A stretch of DNA of 6,760 bases from an archaeon. GTDB taxonomy: Archaea; Iainarchaeota; Iainarchaeia; CSSED10-239. Both the position numbers and the translations under genes were made by a program. Within the stretch, counting starts at the first letter, position 1, and the number at the start of each line of letters is the position of its first letter. The notes beneath the pieces are model-generated. The model ran no database searches, was not told the DNA's origin, and saw only the letters and a list, made by a program, of their open reading frames with translations. The stretch lies in contig JAKQTP010000200.1 of NCBI GenBank assembly GCA_029563035.1, positions 1-6,760 of the forward strand. Direction: 5' to 3'. Positions 32 to 6,760 of the stretch are shown piece after piece.

Positions 32-118
32 GGAGAGGTGGCTGAGCGGCTGAAAGCAGCATCCTGCTAAGATGTTAAGGGGGAAACCCCTTCAAGGGTT
101 CGAATCCCTTCCTCTCCG
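32..118 (+). tRNA. tRNA-Ser (anticodon GCU)
   Basis: Folds as a complete class II tRNA. The acceptor stem GGAGAGG (32-38) pairs with CCTCTCC (111-117), and G118 is the discriminator. The anticodon stem GCATC (59-63) pairs with GATGT (71-75), with one G-U pair. The 7-nt loop CTGCTAA places the anticodon GCT at 66-68, which reads AGC/AGU serine codons. A long variable arm with a GGGG-GAAA-CCCC hairpin is typical of tRNA-Ser. The T arm is AAGGG-TTCGAAT-CCCTT. The bases after the discriminator are CAA, so the CCA end is not encoded and must be added by nucleotidyltransferase. Being 3' proximal to a defence operon, this gene is a candidate integration site. Confidence 0.97.
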
Positions 119-120
119 CA

Positions 121-299: not shown

Positions 300-482
300 A
301 TGAGCGACCGAATTGAAAAGCTTATAACTATAGAAGAAGTAGCTGATATTTTAAGAGTGAGCACCAGAACTATTGTTAGATATATAGAATCTGGAAAATT
401 AAAAGCTTCTAAGATAGGTGTTTGGCGAATTAAAGAATCTGATGTTCACCTATTTTTGGAGGAAACTAGTAATAAAAAATAA
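300..482 (+). CDS. Excisionase-family (MerR-like HTH_17) DNA-binding regulator
   Basis: A 60-residue protein that is almost entirely one winged-helix domain. Residues about 9-57 follow the excisionase/HTH_17 pattern: LITIEEVADILRVS, then the recognition-helix region TRTIVRYIESGKL, then a wing KIGVWRIKESDV. Small proteins of this family bind DNA as excisionases, recombination directionality factors or transcription regulators. Here it is the first gene of the operon, 12 bp before hsdM and behind a promoter with operator-like repeats. A regulator controlling RM expression, and perhaps itself, is therefore the best guess. An excisionase role for an island at the nearby tRNA is the alternative, but no integrase is visible. 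ATG at 300 has no clear Shine-Dalgarno sequence before it, only an A-rich leader. The fold assignment is solid; the role is inferred. Confidence 0.85.
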   Translation: MSDRIEKLITIEEVADILRVSTRTIVRYIESGKLKASKIGVWRIKESDVHLFLEETSNKK

Positions 483-494
483 GATTTAAATATT

Positions 495-2069
495 ATGGCT
501 AATAATTTGAATAATTCTAAAGAACAAGAACGAGCCGAACTTCATAGAGCTATTTGGCAGATTGCTAATGATCTGCGAGGCAGTGTCGATGGTTGGGATT
601 TTAAGCAGTATGTTCTTGGAATGCTCTTTTATCGTTTTATCAGCGAAAACCTTACCAATTACATAAATGCTGATGAACGTCGAACTGGTAAAAAAGATTT
701 TGATTATGCTGTTATCTCTGATAAAGAAGCGGAATTTGGTCGTGCTGACACGGTAAAAGAAAAAGGTTTTTATATTTTGCCAAGTGAGTTATTCGTAAAT
801 GTTTGTAAAAATGCACGTAATAATGCAAATCTTAACGAAACTTTAGCTGAAGTATTTCGCAATATTGAGAACTCAGCTAAAGGTGCAGATAGTGAAGATG
901 ATTTAAAAGGTCTTTTTGATGATATTGATATTAACTCTAAAAAATTAGGCAATACCGTAGAACAAAGAAATCAAAAATTAGCCAAACTTTTAGAATCTAT
1001 CGGCAATCTTCGTCTTGGCAATTATTCTGATAATACTATTGATGCATTCGGTGATGCTTATGAGTTTTTAATGACCATGTATGCCTCAAATGCTGGAAAA
1101 TCTGGCGGAGAATTTTATACTCCGCAAGAAGTCGCTGAGCTTTTAGCAGAAATAACTACAGTTGGCAAAAAAGAAGTTAATAAAGTTTATGACCCGTGTT
1201 GTGGCTCTGGTTCACTTCTTCTTAAGTTTGCCAAGGTTCTTGGAAAAGAAAATGTTAGACTTGGTTTTTACGGTCAAGAAATTAATATCACCACCTTTAA
1301 TCTTTGTCGTATTAACATGTTTTTACACGATATCAATTATAATCATTTTGATATTGAGTTAGGCGATACCTTAACCGATCCAAAACATTGGGACGATGAG
1401 CCATTTGATGCCATAGTTTCTAATCCCCCGTATTCTATTAATTGGGAGGGCGATGCTAATCCATTATTAATTAATGATCCGCGTTTTTCTCCTGCTGGTG
1501 TATTAGCCCCAAAGAGCAAGGCAGATTTAGCGTTTACCATGCACATGCTTTCCTGGCTTTCGACTAGTGGAACAGCGGCGATTGTTGAATTTCCAGGCGT
1601 TTTATATCGTGGCGGGGCAGAACAAAAAATTCGTAAATATTTAGTTGATAATAATTATATTGATACCGTAATTCAATTACCACCTGATTTATTTTTTGGT
1701 GTTACTATCGCTACTTGTATTATTGTTCTTAAAAAAAGCAAGAAAGATAATAAAACTTTGTTTATTGATGCTTCAAAAGAATTTGTTAGGGGTGGAAATA
1801 AAAATAAACTAAGTGAAGAGAATCGCAAAAAGATTCTTAATGCTTTTATTGAACGCAAAGATGCAGAATATTTTGTTAAGTTAGTTGACAACAAAACAAT
1901 TACTGATAACGATTATAATATTGCCGTGTCTAGTTATGTAGTTAGCGAGGATACTCGTGAGGTAGTTGATATTATAGAGCTTAATGAAAAAATTAAAGAG
2001 ATTGTTAAAAGGCAACAAAAGCTTAGAGCGGCGATTGATGAGATTGTCGGGAGAATTGAAAATAATTAA
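495..2069 (+). CDS. hsdM: Type I restriction-modification system methyltransferase subunit HsdM
   Basis: HsdM transfers a methyl group from S-adenosylmethionine to N6 of adenine in each half of the bipartite target, acting as two copies with one HsdS. At 524 residues it is close to the length of EcoR124I HsdM. The N-terminal helical domain (about 1-160) contains the typical segment IWQIANDLRGSVDGWDFKQY and LGMLFYRFISE. The methyltransferase core follows: GGEFYTP (204-210), the SAM-binding motif I DPCCGSG (233-239) and the catalytic motif IV NPPYS (310-314). LPPDLFFG near residue 400 is also typical. The C-terminal end (about 490-524) is a charged, heptad-like helix, the part that usually contacts HsdS. 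All key motifs are intact and there is no frameshift, so it should be active. It lies 12 bp after the HTH gene. The start is supported by family alignment, although there is no Shine-Dalgarno sequence. Confidence 0.97.
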   Translation: MANNLNNSKEQERAELHRAIWQIANDLRGSVDGWDFKQYVLGMLFYRFISENLTNYINADERRTGKKDFDYAVISDKEAEFGRADTVKEKGFYILPSELFVNVCKNARNNANLNETLAEVFRNIENSAKGADSEDDLKGLFDDIDINSKKLGNTVEQRNQKLAKLLESIGNLRLGNYSDNTIDAFGDAYEFLMTMYASNAGKSGGEFYTPQEVAELLAEITTVGKKEVNKVYDPCCGSGSLLLKFAKVLGKENVRLGFYGQEINITTFNLCRINMFLHDINYNHFDIELGDTLTDPKHWDDEPFDAIVSNPPYSINWEGDANPLLINDPRFSPAGVLAPKSKADLAFTMHMLSWLSTSGTAAIVEFPGVLYRGGAEQKIRKYLVDNNYIDTVIQLPPDLFFGVTIATCIIVLKKSKKDNKTLFIDASKEFVRGGNKNKLSEENRKKILNAFIERKDAEYFVKLVDNKTITDNDYNIAVSSYVVSEDTREVVDIIELNEKIKEIVKRQQKLRAAIDEIVGRIENN

Positions 2070-2080
2070 CAATAAACGCT

Positions 2081-3172
2081 ATGGGGCTGTTAGAAATATT
2101 TAAAACATCGGAAGCTGAAATAATCCAAAATAAAAAAGATGGGGTTATTTATATTGCCGATTTTCCTAATGGAACTGGTAAATATGTTTCAATTGCGGAG
2201 GCTAGTATTTCAGCCGATCTTGATGTTAGAATCTCTTCAAGAATTCATTTGCGCGTAACCTATCTAACAAATGATGAAAAGATAAATGGAGTTGAAATAT
2301 CAAAAGTTGATGGAAATAAAGTAGAAAAAATTCATTTTTCAACTTTAGATTTTGAAAGAATTCTACAATTACTAAACCTATTTTCCGAGCTTGATTTAAA
2401 GGCAGTCACCAATAAGACGGTTGTTTTTGACGAATCAATAATTGGCGATTCAAAAGAAGTATCTAAGTTTCTAACACTAATTGTGTCTGATCCGCAAGGG
2501 AAAGATAGAATTAGGGAAATAGCAAAGAATTATGGACTAATCAAATTAGGCGATATTGATAATGTTGTTCACAAAAAAGAAGTAGTGGAACTTTTTGATA
2601 AAATTTTAAATAATGAAAGTGAATTTAATAAATATAAAAAAGAGATTAATGTTGGAAAAGACGAAGAGGTGTGGCAGCGTTTCTTCTCGGAAAATTCTTG
2701 GATCCTTGGTTCTGATTTTGTAGATATCCTTGATGAGCGTCGTATAGATGTAGAAAATATTACTGATTATCTTTTAAAATCATTTGATGGCTTTGTAGAC
2801 ATTATTGAGCTTAAATTGCCAACGGCGCCATTTTGGACAACCGAGTTTATTCCAAAGAGCGAATTAACGTCAGCAACCATGCAATGCAACAGATATATCT
2901 TACAAACTGAAAGAAAAATTAATGATCTCGAATTTAATAAAAAGATTCAAAATACCCCAATTGTTAAACCCCGTATTACTTTAATATATGGACGCTCTCA
3001 GTATTGGGGAGAGAAAGAAAAAGAGGCATATCGTGTTTTAAATTCAAGCTATACAAATTTAAACATCGTCACCTATGATCATTTGATTGAAAGAGCAAGA
3101 CGTCTTATTGGTATGGTAGAAAAAAGTAATATAAATATCGAAGAACTTAATTCTGAAAATATACCATTTTAA
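2081..3172 (+). CDS. Shedu-like (DUF4263) nuclease inserted between hsdM and hsdS
   Basis: A 363-residue protein that is not a standard RM subunit. The C-terminal half (about 195-350) matches the Shedu/DUF4263 nuclease pattern. It has EVWQRFFSENSWILG, then D229-x13-E243-L-K245 (in DYLLKSFDGFVDIIELK), Q268 in SATMQCNRY, and a final segment RITLIYGR...LNIVTYDHLIERA. D229, E243 and K245 would be the PD-(D/E)XK catalytic set. Shedu proteins are known single-gene anti-phage or anti-plasmid defences whose N-terminal regions vary and are thought to sense the trigger. Here residues 1-120 look strand-rich and resemble nothing I recognise; 120-195 look helical. The gene starts 11 bp after hsdM and ends 2 bp before hsdS, so it is co-expressed with the RM genes. 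It may add a second line of defence, or guard against loss or inhibition of RM. Another PD-(D/E)XK family is possible but less likely. Confidence 0.82.
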   Translation: MGLLEIFKTSEAEIIQNKKDGVIYIADFPNGTGKYVSIAEASISADLDVRISSRIHLRVTYLTNDEKINGVEISKVDGNKVEKIHFSTLDFERILQLLNLFSELDLKAVTNKTVVFDESIIGDSKEVSKFLTLIVSDPQGKDRIREIAKNYGLIKLGDIDNVVHKKEVVELFDKILNNESEFNKYKKEINVGKDEEVWQRFFSENSWILGSDFVDILDERRIDVENITDYLLKSFDGFVDIIELKLPTAPFWTTEFIPKSELTSATMQCNRYILQTERKINDLEFNKKIQNTPIVKPRITLIYGRSQYWGEKEKEAYRVLNSSYTNLNIVTYDHLIERARRLIGMVEKSNINIEELNSENIPF

Positions 3173-3174
3173 TT

Positions 3175-4407
3175 ATGACAAATAATCAATTAAAAATTGA
3201 AAAACTAATTTCAGAACTATGTCCCAGTGGCGTTGAGTTTAAGTATTTGTGGCAAATTACGTCATGGGATAAAAGATTTAATGGCGTTTCTATAGAAAAA
3301 CAGAAAAAGATTTTATCTTTTAAACATGTTTCTGCACAGCATCTTAAAAAAATAGAAATAGCCAACGGACGAGTCAAATTATTAGCCACTGGACAATTTG
3401 ATGGATGGACAACACAAGACTTGGCTGGAGATAATTTGAATGATGGTGAAGTAATTACAATACCATCTGGAGGTTCAGCAAATATAAAATATTATAAAGG
3501 CCAGTTTGTTGATAGTGGAAATATCTTGGCTAGTTCGATTGATAATAAAATTTTAAATTTAAAATATTGCTATTACTATCTTCTAATTAGAAATGATTAT
3601 ATTAGCAGCTGTTTTCGTGGCTCGGGCGTTAAACACCCAGATATGGTAAAAATATTATCAATTAAAATCCCCGTCCCACCCCTCCCAATCCAAGAAGAAA
3701 TTGTTAAAATTCTTGATAATTTTACAGAGCTGGAAGCAGAGCTGGAAGCAGAGCTGGAAGCAAGAGATAGACAATATAGGCATTATTTAGAAGAAATATT
3801 AAATGTTAAAAATGCCCAACAAAAAACATTGGCAGAAGTTACGATTCCAACTAAAAATATTAAGTGGAGCGGGACGGATGGTGTTTATAAATATATAGAT
3901 TTAACATCTGTAAGTCGCAATGATCACAGCATAAAAGAAACCATTGAAATTAATTCAAGTAATGCCCCTAGTAGAGCGCAAAAAATAATACAAAAGGATG
4001 ATGTAATTTTTGCGACTACTCGTCCAACGCTTCAGCGGTTTGCTTTAATTAATGATGAGTATGACGGTCAAGTTGCAAGTACGGGATATTGTGTGTTGAG
4101 GGCTGATAGAAAAGAAGTTTTATCAAAATGGATTTATTTTAATATTGCTTCAGCTCGGTTTAAAAATTATGTTGAGAAAAATCAAGAAGGATCAGCTTAT
4201 CCATCAATTTCTGATTCCAAAGTAAAATCATTTAAAATCCCTATTCCGTCCCTCGCCGAACAAAAGCGTATCGTTACGATTCTCGATAAATTTGATTCAT
4301 TAGTAAATGACATCTCAATTGGTCTGCCAGCTGAACTCAAAGCTCGTCGTCAACAATATGAATATTATAGAAATAAACTTTTAACTTTCAAAGAATATGT
4401 CGGTTAA
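3175..4407 (+). CDS. hsdS: Type I restriction-modification specificity subunit HsdS
   Basis: HsdS recognises the bipartite DNA target and holds two HsdM (and HsdR) subunits. The 410-residue protein has the usual pseudo-twofold plan. Target recognition domain 1 covers about 20-165. The central conserved helix starts at PPLPIQEEIVKILDNF (168-183) and contains ELEAELEAELEA (185-196) and RDRQYRHYLEEIL. Target recognition domain 2 covers about 215-355. The C-terminal conserved helix starts at LAEQKRIVTILDKF (360-373) and ends with AELKARRQQYEYYRNKLL. The two conserved blocks are clearly related to each other, while the two recognition domains are not, so an asymmetric target is expected; its sequence cannot be read from here. 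The gene starts 2 bp after the Shedu-like gene and overlaps hsdR by 11 bp. The central repeat resembles the TAEL repeats of EcoR124I-type enzymes. Confidence 0.96.
   Translation: MTNNQLKIEKLISELCPSGVEFKYLWQITSWDKRFNGVSIEKQKKILSFKHVSAQHLKKIEIANGRVKLLATGQFDGWTTQDLAGDNLNDGEVITIPSGGSANIKYYKGQFVDSGNILASSIDNKILNLKYCYYYLLIRNDYISSCFRGSGVKHPDMVKILSIKIPVPPLPIQEEIVKILDNFTELEAELEAELEARDRQYRHYLEEILNVKNAQQKTLAEVTIPTKNIKWSGTDGVYKYIDLTSVSRNDHSIKETIEINSSNAPSRAQKIIQKDDVIFATTRPTLQRFALINDEYDGQVASTGYCVLRADRKEVLSKWIYFNIASARFKNYVEKNQEGSAYPSISDSKVKSFKIPIPSLAEQKRIVTILDKFDSLVNDISIGLPAELKARRQQYEYYRNKLLTFKEYVG
3727..3762 (+). repeat. Three perfect 12-bp tandem repeats in the hsdS central spacer
   Basis: GAGCTGGAAGCA occurs three times head to tail without a mismatch, encoding ELEA x3 at HsdS residues 185-196. 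Each unit is a multiple of three, so gain or loss keeps the frame and changes the helix length by four residues. In EcoR124I and its relatives, repeats at the same place (TAEL units) set the number of nonspecific bases between the two half-sites. The C-terminal conserved block has a single equivalent, AELKAR, so the expansion is confined to the central spacer. Confidence 0.93.
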
Positions 4408-6760
4408 TAATAAATACAATTTAGTTGCCGAGAGCACGCAGAGTACAGTTGTGGCTGAATACACTCCAAACGGAAAAAGAATCTCTGATTATCAAAGTGA
4501 AGCTGAATTAGAGAACGCTTTTATAGAACAGCTAAAAACTCAGGCTTATGAATATGTGGCTATAACCTCTGAGGCTGATTTGGTTTTGAATTTACGTAAG
4601 CAATTAGAGAAGTTAAATAATTTTAATTTTACCGACGGCGAATGGAGTAATTTTTTTAATAGTGAAATTTCTAATCCAAACCAAAATATAGAAGATAAAA
4701 CAGCAACCATTCAAGAGGATCATATAAAAAACTTAGTTCGTGAAGATGGCTCAATAAAGAATGTTTATCTTTTGAAGAAGGATAATATTCATGATAATAG
4801 TCTTCAGATTATTAATCAGTATGCAACTGAAGATGGACAAAGAGCTAATCGTTATGATGTCACAATTCTTGTTAATGGCTTGCCCCTAATTCATGTTGAG
4901 CTTAAACGTCGTGGCGTAGCTATTCAAGAGGCTTTTAACCAGATTAATCGTTATCAAAGAGAAAGTTTTTGGGCCTCGTCTGGCCTTTTCGAATATGTGC
5001 AACTGTTTGTAATTTCAAATGGCACTCATACAAAATATTATAGCAACACTACCAGATATCAGCATATTAAAGATGCTAATGAGGGCGCTTCTAAGAAAGG
5101 CAAACGTACTAGTAATAGCTTTGAATTTACTAGCTGGTGGGCTGACGCCACTAATAAACCGATTACTGATTTAATGGATTTTGCTAAAACATTTTTTGCT
5201 AAGCATGCCGTTTTAAATATTTTGACTAAATATTGCGTTTTTACCACCGACCACTTACTTTTAGTAATGCGTCCCTATCAAATTGTAGCCACGGAAAAAA
5301 TATTAAATAAAATTGAAATCAGTACTAATTATAAAAAATTAGGTACCGTAGAAGCAGGTGGATATATCTGGCACACAACTGGCTCTGGAAAAACTTTAAC
5401 TAGTTTTAAAACTGCTCAATTAGCCAGCAAATTACCTTATATTGATAAAGTTTTATTTGTTGTTGATCGTAAAGATTTGGATTATCAGACCATGAAAGAA
5501 TATGATAAGTTTGCCAAAGGGGCGGCCAATAGTAATACTAGTACAGCTATTTTAAAAAAGCAGTTAGAAGACCCTAATGCTAACATTATTATTACCACTA
5601 TTCAAAAACTCGATAGATTTATTGGGAAAAATAAAGGGCATAATATTTTTGATGGTCATGTAGTTATTATATTTGATGAATGTCATCGCTCTCAATTTGG
5701 TGAAATGCATGCGGCTATTACTAAAGCTTTTAATAATTACCATCTTTTTGGTTTTACTGGTACTCCTATTTTTGCGATTAATTCTTCTTCTGGTGGGCGG
5801 ATTGATTTTAAGACTACCGAGCAAGCTTTTGGCGAAAAATTACATACCTATACTATTGTTAACGCTATTGCTGATAAAAATGTTTTGCCATTTAAGGTTG
5901 ACTATATTTCCACCGTTAAAGAGGCGGAAAATATTGATGATAAAAAGGTTAGTGATATTGATCGAGAAGCAATTTTAGCTGCTCCTGAGCGCTTAGAAAA
6001 TATCGTTCGCTATATTTGTGAACACTTTGATCAAAAAACTAAACGCAATAGTTTTTATAAAATAAAAGAGAGAAGGTTGGCTGGATTTAATTCTATTTTT
6101 GCTGTTTCTTCCATTGATGTTGCAAAAAAGTATTATGCCGAATTTAAAAAACAACTTTTAAATTCACCCAGTGACAAGCGTCTTAAAATTGCGATAATTT
6201 ATAGTTTTGGTGTTAATGATGAAGATGCTGATGGACTGGTTGATGAAAACTCAGAAGACACTAGTGGACTAGATCTTAGTTCGAGAGATTTCTTAGAAAA
6301 TGCGATCACTGATTACAATGCGATGTTTGGCACTTCTTATGACACCTCATCTGATAAATTCCAAAATTATTATAAAGATGTCAGTCAAAGAGTAAAAGAT
6401 AGAGAAGTTGATATTTTAATTGTGGTTAATATGTTTTTGACTGGCTTTGATGCTACTACTCTAAATACTTTATGGGTTGATAAAAATTTAAGATTACACG
6501 GATTACTACAAGCCTATTCTCGCACTAATCGTATTTTAAATAGTGTTAAAACTTTTGGTAATATTGTTTGCTTTCGTAATTTAGAGAAAGCAACCAACGA
6601 ATCAATTTCATTATTTGGTGATAAAGAGGCTAGTGGCATTGTTTTACTTAAATCTTATGCTGAATATTATAATGGCTACAAAGATGGTAATAAAGAAGTT
6701 CGTGGATATGTCAGCTTAGTTGATGAGTTAATGGAGAAATTTCCAGTTGGTGTTAGGATT
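4397..6760 (+). CDS. hsdR: Type I restriction endonuclease subunit HsdR (3' end outside window)
   Basis: HsdR is the ATP-driven translocase and nuclease of the complex. The frame stays open for 788 codons to the window edge; EcoR124I HsdR is about 1,040 residues, so roughly a quarter is missing, probably the rest of the helical domain and the C-terminal domain. The nuclease domain has D154-x13-E168-L-K170 and a QxxxY motif (Q182, Y186), as in EcoR124I. The helicase motifs are in order: Walker A TTGSGKT with K332, DECH (427-430), GFTGTP (452-457), VVNMFLTGFD (676-685) and QAYSRTNR (705-712). All look intact, so the enzyme should cut. ATG at 4397 overlaps the end of hsdS by 11 bp; it is the only reasonable start, because the next in-frame Met lies deep inside the protein. 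The overlap suggests translation coupled to hsdS. Confidence 0.96.
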   Translation, partial: MSVNNKYNLVAESTQSTVVAEYTPNGKRISDYQSEAELENAFIEQLKTQAYEYVAITSEADLVLNLRKQLEKLNNFNFTDGEWSNFFNSEISNPNQNIEDKTATIQEDHIKNLVREDGSIKNVYLLKKDNIHDNSLQIINQYATEDGQRANRYDVTILVNGLPLIHVELKRRGVAIQEAFNQINRYQRESFWASSGLFEYVQLFVISNGTHTKYYSNTTRYQHIKDANEGASKKGKRTSNSFEFTSWWADATNKPITDLMDFAKTFFAKHAVLNILTKYCVFTTDHLLLVMRPYQIVATEKILNKIEISTNYKKLGTVEAGGYIWHTTGSGKTLTSFKTAQLASKLPYIDKVLFVVDRKDLDYQTMKEYDKFAKGAANSNTSTAILKKQLEDPNANIIITTIQKLDRFIGKNKGHNIFDGHVVIIFDECHRSQFGEMHAAITKAFNNYHLFGFTGTPIFAINSSSGGRIDFKTTEQAFGEKLHTYTIVNAIADKNVLPFKVDYISTVKEAENIDDKKVSDIDREAILAAPERLENIVRYICEHFDQKTKRNSFYKIKERRLAGFNSIFAVSSIDVAKKYYAEFKKQLLNSPSDKRLKIAIIYSFGVNDEDADGLVDENSEDTSGLDLSSRDFLENAITDYNAMFGTSYDTSSDKFQNYYKDVSQRVKDREVDILIVVNMFLTGFDATTLNTLWVDKNLRLHGLLQAYSRTNRILNSVKTFGNIVCFRNLEKATNESISLFGDKEASGIVLLKSYAEYYNGYKDGNKEVRGYVSLVDELMEKFPVGVRI

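What the first reader, a model, noticed from the sequence alone, without database searches (positions are those of the whole stretch)
495..4407. A Shedu-like nuclease gene sits between hsdM and hsdS of an intact type I RM operon
Seen: an intact 363-codon gene with the Shedu C-terminal pattern (D229, E243, K245, Q268) is embedded with 11-bp and 2-bp gaps between two genes whose products form one methyltransferase. Known: Shedu is usually described as a stand-alone defence gene, and type I operons often carry extra genes. Inferred: the two nucleases are co-regulated. Shedu could act as a back-up when phage anti-restriction proteins block HsdR, or be held inactive by the M/S complex. The unrecognised N-terminal 195 residues would be the sensor. 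The position inside the M-S pair also forces its expression level to match the RM subunits.
Basis: partly seen in the sequence, partly recalled or inferred. Interest (0 to 1): 0.8.

Follow-up and report, generated by a model that had tools for sequence, protein, structure and literature searches.

The report
Shedu nuclease with SSB-like tail
A bacterial anti-virus DNA-cutting enzyme sits inside another defence system's gene cluster, in a slot where related microbes carry different defence genes, and its tail end looks like the docking tip of the cell's own single-strand DNA-binding protein, which may be how it finds its target.

Summary
A 363-aa Shedu (SduA_C) protein lies between hsdM and hsdS, with gaps of 11 and 2 bp and the catalytic residues D229/E243/K245/Q268. 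It is not a one-off: of 16 genome loci found, the 9 closest full-length relatives (46-83% identity) all lie in type I RM operons, 7 of 9 between hsdM and hsdS, in five HsdM backbone groups. Position alone is not special: in 37 type I operons of the same phylum, 26 carry a gene of 150 aa or more in that gap (Fic, RhuM, AbiTii, OLD-like, ThsA-like and others). On one backbone (HsdM 78-88% identical) the slot is empty, holds Shedu, or holds other cargo. The best reading is an exchangeable defence cassette rather than a subunit held by the M/S complex.

73 of 177 listed homologues end in -PF and match SSB tips of host genomes at 5-11 of the last 11 residues. So do only 2 of 440 control ORFs (both genes of the same slot) and 0 of 359 ORFs of another genome. 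I propose that this tip docks Shedu onto SSB-binding repair proteins. That is inference, untested.

The parts
32..119 (+). tRNA-Ser (GCT), upstream neighbour; possible island boundary (inferred)
   Evidence: ARAGORN
300..482 (+). 60-aa helix-turn-helix gene (HTH_17/excisionase-like), possible operon regulator (inferred)
   Evidence: PF12728 60.8 bits; TIGR01764 45.5 bits; weak MAD1 match below its cut-off (26.3 against 80 bits)
495..2069 (+). hsdM, type I methyltransferase subunit
   Evidence: PF02384, PF12161; TIGR00497 757 bits; NPPY at residue 310
2081..3172 (+). RM-linked Shedu nuclease (SduA_C), 363 aa, in the hsdM-hsdS cargo slot
   Evidence: PF14082 67.6 bits; PADLOC SduA; 8ti8/8ps4 fold matches
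2657..3088 (+). SduA_C PD-(D/E)XK domain, residues 193-336, with D229, E243, K245, Q268
   Evidence: one search match range; residues checked; invariant in A3
3122..3169 (+). low-confidence (probably disordered) C-terminal tail, residues 348-363, ending IEELNSENIPF, like SSB C-terminal tips
   Evidence: pLDDT below 50 at 348-363; tip comparison
3175..4407 (+). hsdS, type I specificity subunit, two Methylase_S stretches
   Evidence: PF01420, 2 stretches
4397..6760 (+). hsdR, type I restriction subunit, cut off by the window end
   Evidence: PF04313, PF18766, PF22679; TIGR00348 575 bits

Best explanation
A type I RM operon, most likely of a Patescibacteria-type genome, carries a Shedu nuclease as an exchangeable defence cassette in the hsdM-hsdS gap, a slot that many operons of this phylum use for accessory genes. 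Shown: its identity and catalytic residues, the recurrent placement, the occurrence of close relatives on different RM backbones, and an SSB-like C-terminal tip in the clade around the window. Inferred: the cassette is co-expressed with the RM genes and acts as a second, separate DNA-end nuclease that complements them, for example on ends left by HsdR or on linear phage DNA. The tip docks it on host proteins that normally bind SSB (such as RecO, RecQ or PriA), bringing it to DNA being replicated or repaired.
For: SduA_C and fold matches. Of 16 loci found, the 9 closest full-length relatives (46-83% identity) all lie in type I operons, 7 of 9 between M and S. Of all 16, 14 have a DNA methyltransferase as neighbour. 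Shedu identity to the window is 71% in L004 while HsdM is 33% and HsdR 27%; in L005 it is 62/28/29%. Slot control: 26 of 37 operons have cargo between M and S, and 27 of these 38 cargo genes were scanned. Tip: of 177 listed homologues 76 end in PF and 76 match one of ten host SSB tails at 5 or more of 11 residues; 73 do both. 2 of 440 control ORFs reach 5 (both M-S cargo), and 0 of 359 ORFs in 400 kb of genome G307. Leaving out the last two letters, 35 of 76 PF-ending Shedus, 2 of 101 other Shedus and 0 of 440 controls match at 5 or more of nine. One homologue is identical at 11 of 11 (EEEIKIEDIPF). Distant Shedus L014, L016, L168 and L170 end NDLPF, DDLPF, DYLPF and DDLPF. DNA-end cleavage by E. 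coli SduA is reported in a review (PMC12904381, passages).
Against: No binding or phage data exist here for this family. The tip is clade-specific: 49 of the 60 closest listed homologues end in PF, 22 of the next 31, 5 of the next 29, and 0 of 57 further ones. So the RM link does not need it, and in L001 an in-frame TAG removes it. PF alone is not unique: 6 of 440 control ORFs end in it, three of them HsdM proteins with a different, non-SSB-like end. The counts are not phylogenetically independent and come from capped lists. The N-terminal model is poor (pLDDT about 40-60). The slot hosts many gene kinds, so proximity may reflect insertion tolerance only.
Confidence: 0.5

Rival explanations
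1. Passenger cassette: the M-S gap simply tolerates insertions, and Shedu works there as a stand-alone system with no functional link to RM or to SSB partners.
For: 26 of 37 type I operons carry varied cargo in the gap. The same backbone is found empty, with Shedu, or with other cargo. An embedded system that protects when expressed without the RM genes is published: TgvAB, though it protected less well alone (passages of PMC11411939).
Against: This clade was not seen outside RM loci (9 of 9), and several more distant relatives sit beside other methyltransferases. It leaves the SSB-like tip unexplained.
Confidence: 0.3
2. PrrC-like guard: the M/S complex holds Shedu inactive and releases it when a phage anti-restriction protein hits the RM complex.
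For: PrrC is embedded in and silenced by a type IC system (passages of PMC3874165, and PMC2610378). This Shedu clade, like PrrC, looks tightly linked to RM loci.
Against: The clade pairs with HsdM families only 25-34% identical to the window's, and two loci place it after hsdS (L008, L009). No interaction evidence.
Confidence: 0.12
3. The PF tail is an autoinhibitory acidic flap: it occupies the protein's own DNA-binding site until DNA ends displace it, and is not a docking tip.
For: Acidic tails that compete with DNA are known in ssDNA-binding proteins (recalled). Shedu autoinhibition relieved by DNA-end binding is listed in the review PMC12904381 (passage).
Against: The close match to host SSB tips over up to 11 residues, with L/I variants that look host-typical (the Firmicutes SSB tip is recalled), is more than acidity needs.
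Confidence: 0.08

Closest known systems
Shedu / SduA (B. cereus 8ti8, E. coli 8ps4)
   Different: Embedded in a type I RM operon; N-terminal region not matched to the solved ones; SSB-like C-terminal tip, whereas the deposited 8ti8 and 8ps4 chains end 1-4 residues after the aligned nuclease domain.
PrrC in EcoprrI, and restriction-linked rlo genes
   Same: Accessory nuclease gene inside a type I RM operon.
   Different: PrrC is an ABC-type anticodon RNase; here a DNA-nuclease fold. No PrrC-type domain match in the window protein.
TgvAB in V. cholerae VPI-2; DarTG2 in the EPEC RptR island
   Same: Defence genes embedded in a type I operon (passages); the EPEC island also starts with a small regulator gene.
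   Different: They lie between hsdS and hsdR; here the gene lies between hsdM and hsdS, and it is a Shedu nuclease.
SSB C-terminal tip (SSB-Ct)
   Same: Probably disordered linker plus an acidic tip ending in Pro-Phe; up to 11 of 11 residues identical to a host SSB in one homologue, 7 of 11 in the window protein.
   Different: Attached to a nuclease; no SSB (PF00436) domain match.

Membership tests
Shedu (SduA) | SduA_C/DUF4263 domain above the curated cut-off | tested here: met
   67.6 against 27 bits; PADLOC E 4.7e-64
Shedu (SduA) | PD-(D/E)XK catalytic residues | tested here: met
   D229, E243, K245, Q268, invariant in the 112 sequences of A3
Shedu (SduA) | Fold of the nuclease domain | tested here: met
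Shedu (SduA) | Known type of N-terminal regulatory domain | tested here: inconclusive
Shedu (SduA) | DNA-end nuclease activity and phage defence | not testable with these tools
   needs biochemistry
Type I RM operon | HsdM, HsdS and HsdR domains | tested here: met
   HsdR incomplete in the window
PrrC-type RM guard | ABC ATPase / anticodon nuclease domains | tested here: not met
   no such Pfam match in the 363-aa protein
PrrC-type RM guard | Silenced by the RM complex | not testable with these tools
   needs complex and activity assays
SSB-Ct-like tip | Acidic C-terminus ending in Pro-Phe after a probably disordered linker, matching host SSB | tested here: met
   the window's own host SSB is not available, so the match is to SSB tails of relatives' genomes
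SSB-Ct-like tip | Binds SSB-interacting proteins | not testable with these tools
   needs binding assays
MADS | MAD1/MAD2/MAD5 models above their cut-offs | tested here: not met
   26.3 against 80, 50 against 720, 39.6 against 400 bits

The most novel reading that the evidence does not exclude
Some anti-phage nucleases find their target by mimicking the host SSB tail. A Shedu clade that travels as a cassette in type I RM operons carries a copy of the SSB docking tip, so the host's own SSB-partner proteins deliver the nuclease to replicating or broken DNA, or are titrated away so that RM breaks cannot be repaired. The same tip arose more than once in Shedu and in other RM-slot genes.
Probability: 0.35. 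Interest if true: 0.82.

Novelty: new variant of a known kind. Interest (0 to 1): 0.68.

Why it matters
How Shedu avoids cutting host DNA is described as open in a 2026 review (PMC12904381, passage), which mentions possible unidentified specificity determinants. A conserved SSB-like tip is a concrete, easily tested candidate. The hsdM-hsdS cargo slot is also a practical hunting ground: in Patescibacteria it held an accessory gene in 26 of 37 operons, and 5 of 27 scanned cargo genes matched no Pfam family at E 0.001, so genes there are good candidates for new defence functions.

Tried and rejected

RecBCD replacement: I asked whether these hosts lack RecB/AddA, so that Shedu finishes HsdR-cut DNA. 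0 of 11 genomes passed the curated cut-offs, but partial matches in reading frames of about 1000 aa exist and only 1 and 2 of 14 control genomes pass. Inconclusive, dropped.

Phage or viral carriage: no relatives confirmed among viral contigs or phage records. Plasmid hits were all below 60% identity, for the window protein 20-31%.

A coding constraint from the hsdS start as cause of the PF ending: rejected as sole cause, because I saw no hsdS directly after the tip in L014, L016, L168 and L170 (L168 and L170 judged by eye over about 1.4 kb).

Literature: ten searches. In the listings and passages that I saw, none describes a Shedu gene between hsdM and hsdS, or an SSB-like tip on Shedu. The main Shedu papers were not read: Gu 2025 is not held, a preprint looked up by a DOI given from memory is not held, Loeff 2025 and the embedding preprint of Payne 2024 were not looked up. 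Either point could be in print.

Full report
WHAT IS THERE. The window holds, in order on the + strand, a tRNA-Ser (32-119), a 60-aa helix-turn-helix gene (300-482), hsdM (495-2069), a 363-aa SduA_C gene (2081-3172), hsdS (3175-4407) and hsdR (4397 to the window end). Gaps are 12, 11 and 2 bp, then an 11-bp overlap. Domain matches are strong. hsdR is cut at 788 codons; L001-L003 have 1017-1020. No whole genome is held for the window. The closest protein (98%) is from a MAG labelled archaeon on a 4-kb contig; of the 8 homologues listed with an organism name, 6 are Patescibacteria groups. The host phylum is therefore likely but not proven.

THE PLACEMENT IS RECURRENT. One scan of genome contigs with the family alignment gave 16 loci. 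The nine closest full-length relatives, 46-83% identical (L001-L009), all lie in type I operons: L001-L007 between hsdM and hsdS (other genes share the gap in L001, L002, L005, L006 and L007), and L008 and L009 directly after hsdS (no HsdR was identified in L008). Of the remaining seven, L016 follows an N6_Mtase and a Methylase_S gene; L010, L011 and L014 lie next to a D12 methyltransferase, L014 divergently; L015 lies in a DpnII-type system. In L012 and L013 I saw no methyltransferase, but scanned only one and two neighbours. So 14 of 16 have a DNA methyltransferase neighbour. The eleven genomes of L001-L011 have one SduA_C match each. Ten more distant Shedus turned up in other Patescibacteria genomes (only about 1.5 kb flanks): three lie beside hsd genes (L019, L021, L031), and in seven I saw none. 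This profile search misses distant Shedus: L091, a Shedu between hsdS and hsdR in genome G313, was not listed.

THE CASSETTE OCCURS ON DIFFERENT BACKBONES. Identity to the window for Shedu/HsdM/HsdR: L001 83/86/83, L002 76/84/82, L003 75/78/76, L004 71/33/27, L005 62/28/29, L006 53/25/32, L007 55/25/25, L009 46/25/23; Shedu/HsdM for L008 47/34. From L004 on, the nuclease is far more similar than the RM proteins around it, which points to exchange between five backbone groups (window and L001-L003; L004; L005-L007; L008; L009; groups at most 40% identical in HsdM).

THE SLOT IS GENERAL. HsdM_N occurs in 84 of 379 Patescibacteria genomes; a full-length member of this Shedu family was found in only 1 of the same 379, the centre genome itself, so it is rare. 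I fetched 40 of the 99 listed HsdM_N matches, mostly high-scoring ones; 37 had hsdM and a downstream hsdS (not L070, L075, L089). 26 of 37 carry at least one gene of 150 aa or more between them, 38 genes in all. Twenty of these, one per operon, gave RhuM, Fic, Bro-N, AbiTii, AAA_15/OLD-like TOPRIM, DUF5677, DUF4917, DUF3800, DUF2130, GIY-YIG/DUF4357, ThsA Macro, Schlafen AlbA and others; seven more gave KilA-N, an SMC/AAA piece and five without a Pfam match. Among operons whose HsdM is 78-88% identical to the window's, L098, L093, L100 and L087 have hsdM and hsdS abutting; L088, L092, L085 and L090 have other cargo; the window and L001-L003 have Shedu. L099, with the same backbone and other cargo, has a split HsdM, and L089 no hsdS downstream.

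THE TAIL. The protein ends IEELNSENIPF. This resembles the SSB C-terminal tip. The abstract of PMC10018359 (start seen in the listing) describes a nine-residue acidic tip that recruits at least 17 partner proteins, and a passage of PMC11981726 gives DDDIPF for the SSB-Ct peptide. I therefore read the SSB tails of the genomes that carry this Shedu or its relatives: 9 of 11 have a PF00436 match, ten matches in all, with ends such as EEEIKIEDIPF, DDEIKIEDIPF, EEEIRVENIPF and EDEVKIEDVPF. The 177 Shedu homologues are those listed by three capped searches. 70 end in [ILVM]PF and 76 in PF. 76 match one of the ten SSB tails at 5 or more of the last 11 residues; 73 do both. The window protein matches at 7 and one homologue at 11 of 11. 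Controls: of 440 non-Shedu ORFs of 120 aa or more in L001-L016 and L065-L104, 2 reach 5 (L101 5645-6694 and L090 5879-6973), and both are themselves hsdM-hsdS cargo. Six of the 440 end in PF: these two, a PIN-domain gene between hsdS and hsdR in L072, and three HsdM proteins (L082, L091, L101) whose ends are not SSB-like. In 400 kb of genome G307, 0 of 359 ORFs of 100 aa or more reach 5 and none ends in PF. To avoid counting PF twice I compared only the nine residues before it: 5 or more match in 35 of 76 PF-ending Shedus, 2 of 101 other Shedus and 0 of 440 controls. Positions -3 (I 54 of 76), -4 (D 51), -5 (E 40), -8 (I 40, V 19) and -9 (E 45) follow the SSB pattern, while the linker before them varies in sequence and length.

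THE TAIL IS NOT UNIVERSAL. PF ends occur in 49 of 60, 22 of 31, 5 of 29 and 0 of 57 homologues, the first three groups in order of distance from the window, the last from the two profile searches; L005-L013 and L015 lack it. In L001 an in-frame TAG precedes it. It also occurs in distant Shedus: L014 (VNDLPF) and L016 (EEDDLPF), and among the five matches in 391 genomes of the class of L016, in three: L016 itself, L168 (DDDYLPF) and L170 (YDDDLPF). The L170 reading frame (201 aa, its N-terminal part apparently in a separate frame) is close to the B. cereus SduA nuclease domain (E 7.5e-44). That Firmicutes SSB ends in DDDLPF is recalled, not checked.

HOW IT MOST LIKELY WORKS. E. coli SduA binds DNA ends and nicks at a fixed distance, and what prevents self-cutting is described as open (PMC12904381, passages; secondary source). 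I infer a second-line DNA-end nuclease made together with the RM enzyme, whose HsdR makes free ends in unmodified DNA, and whose tip docks it to proteins that gather at SSB-coated DNA. Docking, competition for those partners, and autoinhibition are not separable from sequence. A PrrC-like hold by HsdM/HsdS is possible but fits poorly with the variety of backbones.

KNOWN AND NEW. Genes embedded in type I operons are established: PrrC (PMC3874165, PMC2610378, passages), TgvAB (PMC11411939, passages), DarTG2 with the regulator RptR (PMC12255303, passages). Shedu with varied N-terminal domains is established (PMC12409362, passages; PMC12137116, passages). What I did not find in the listings and passages seen is this RM-linked Shedu clade, the frequency of the M-S slot in Patescibacteria, and the SSB-like tip; the primary Shedu papers and the Payne 2024 preprint were not read.

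Noticed in passing
Patescibacteria type I operons L065-L104: The hsdM-hsdS gap carries one or more genes of 150 aa or more in 26 of 37 operons: Fic, RhuM, Bro-N, AbiTii, OLD-like, ThsA-like, Schlafen-like and, of 27 scanned, five of no known Pfam family.
   Followed up: partly
L101 5645-6694 (-) and L090 5879-6973 (-): Two other hsdM-hsdS cargo proteins, one without any Pfam match and one OLD-like TOPRIM, also end like SSB (VNDIPF, FEMPF).
   Followed up: partly
L072 3236-4309 (-): A PIN-domain protein between hsdS and hsdR ends in AQLPF.
   Followed up: no
L082 7523-9100, L091 7561-9114, L101 7531-9090 (all -): Three HsdM proteins (42-44% identical to the window's) end in ELGI..PF, a different PF ending.
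   Followed up: no
L170 and L168: Shedu proteins in genomes of the class of L016 end YDDDLPF and DDDYLPF; the L170 nuclease domain is close to B. cereus SduA.
   Followed up: partly
L015 6927-9537: A Shedu gene follows a DpnII endonuclease and an N6_N4 methyltransferase gene and overlaps the latter by 4 bp.
   Followed up: partly
L091 3516-4760 (-): Another, distant Shedu (414 aa, SduA_C 88.5 bits) lies between hsdS and hsdR.
   Followed up: no
window 300-482 and L008 5332-6993: The window has a 60-aa HTH gene before hsdM; in L008 a MerR-type HTH is fused to the HsdM N-terminus.
   Followed up: no
L008 10052-19006 (+): A reading frame of 2985 codons follows the Shedu gene; its first 1000 residues have no Pfam match.
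   Followed up: no
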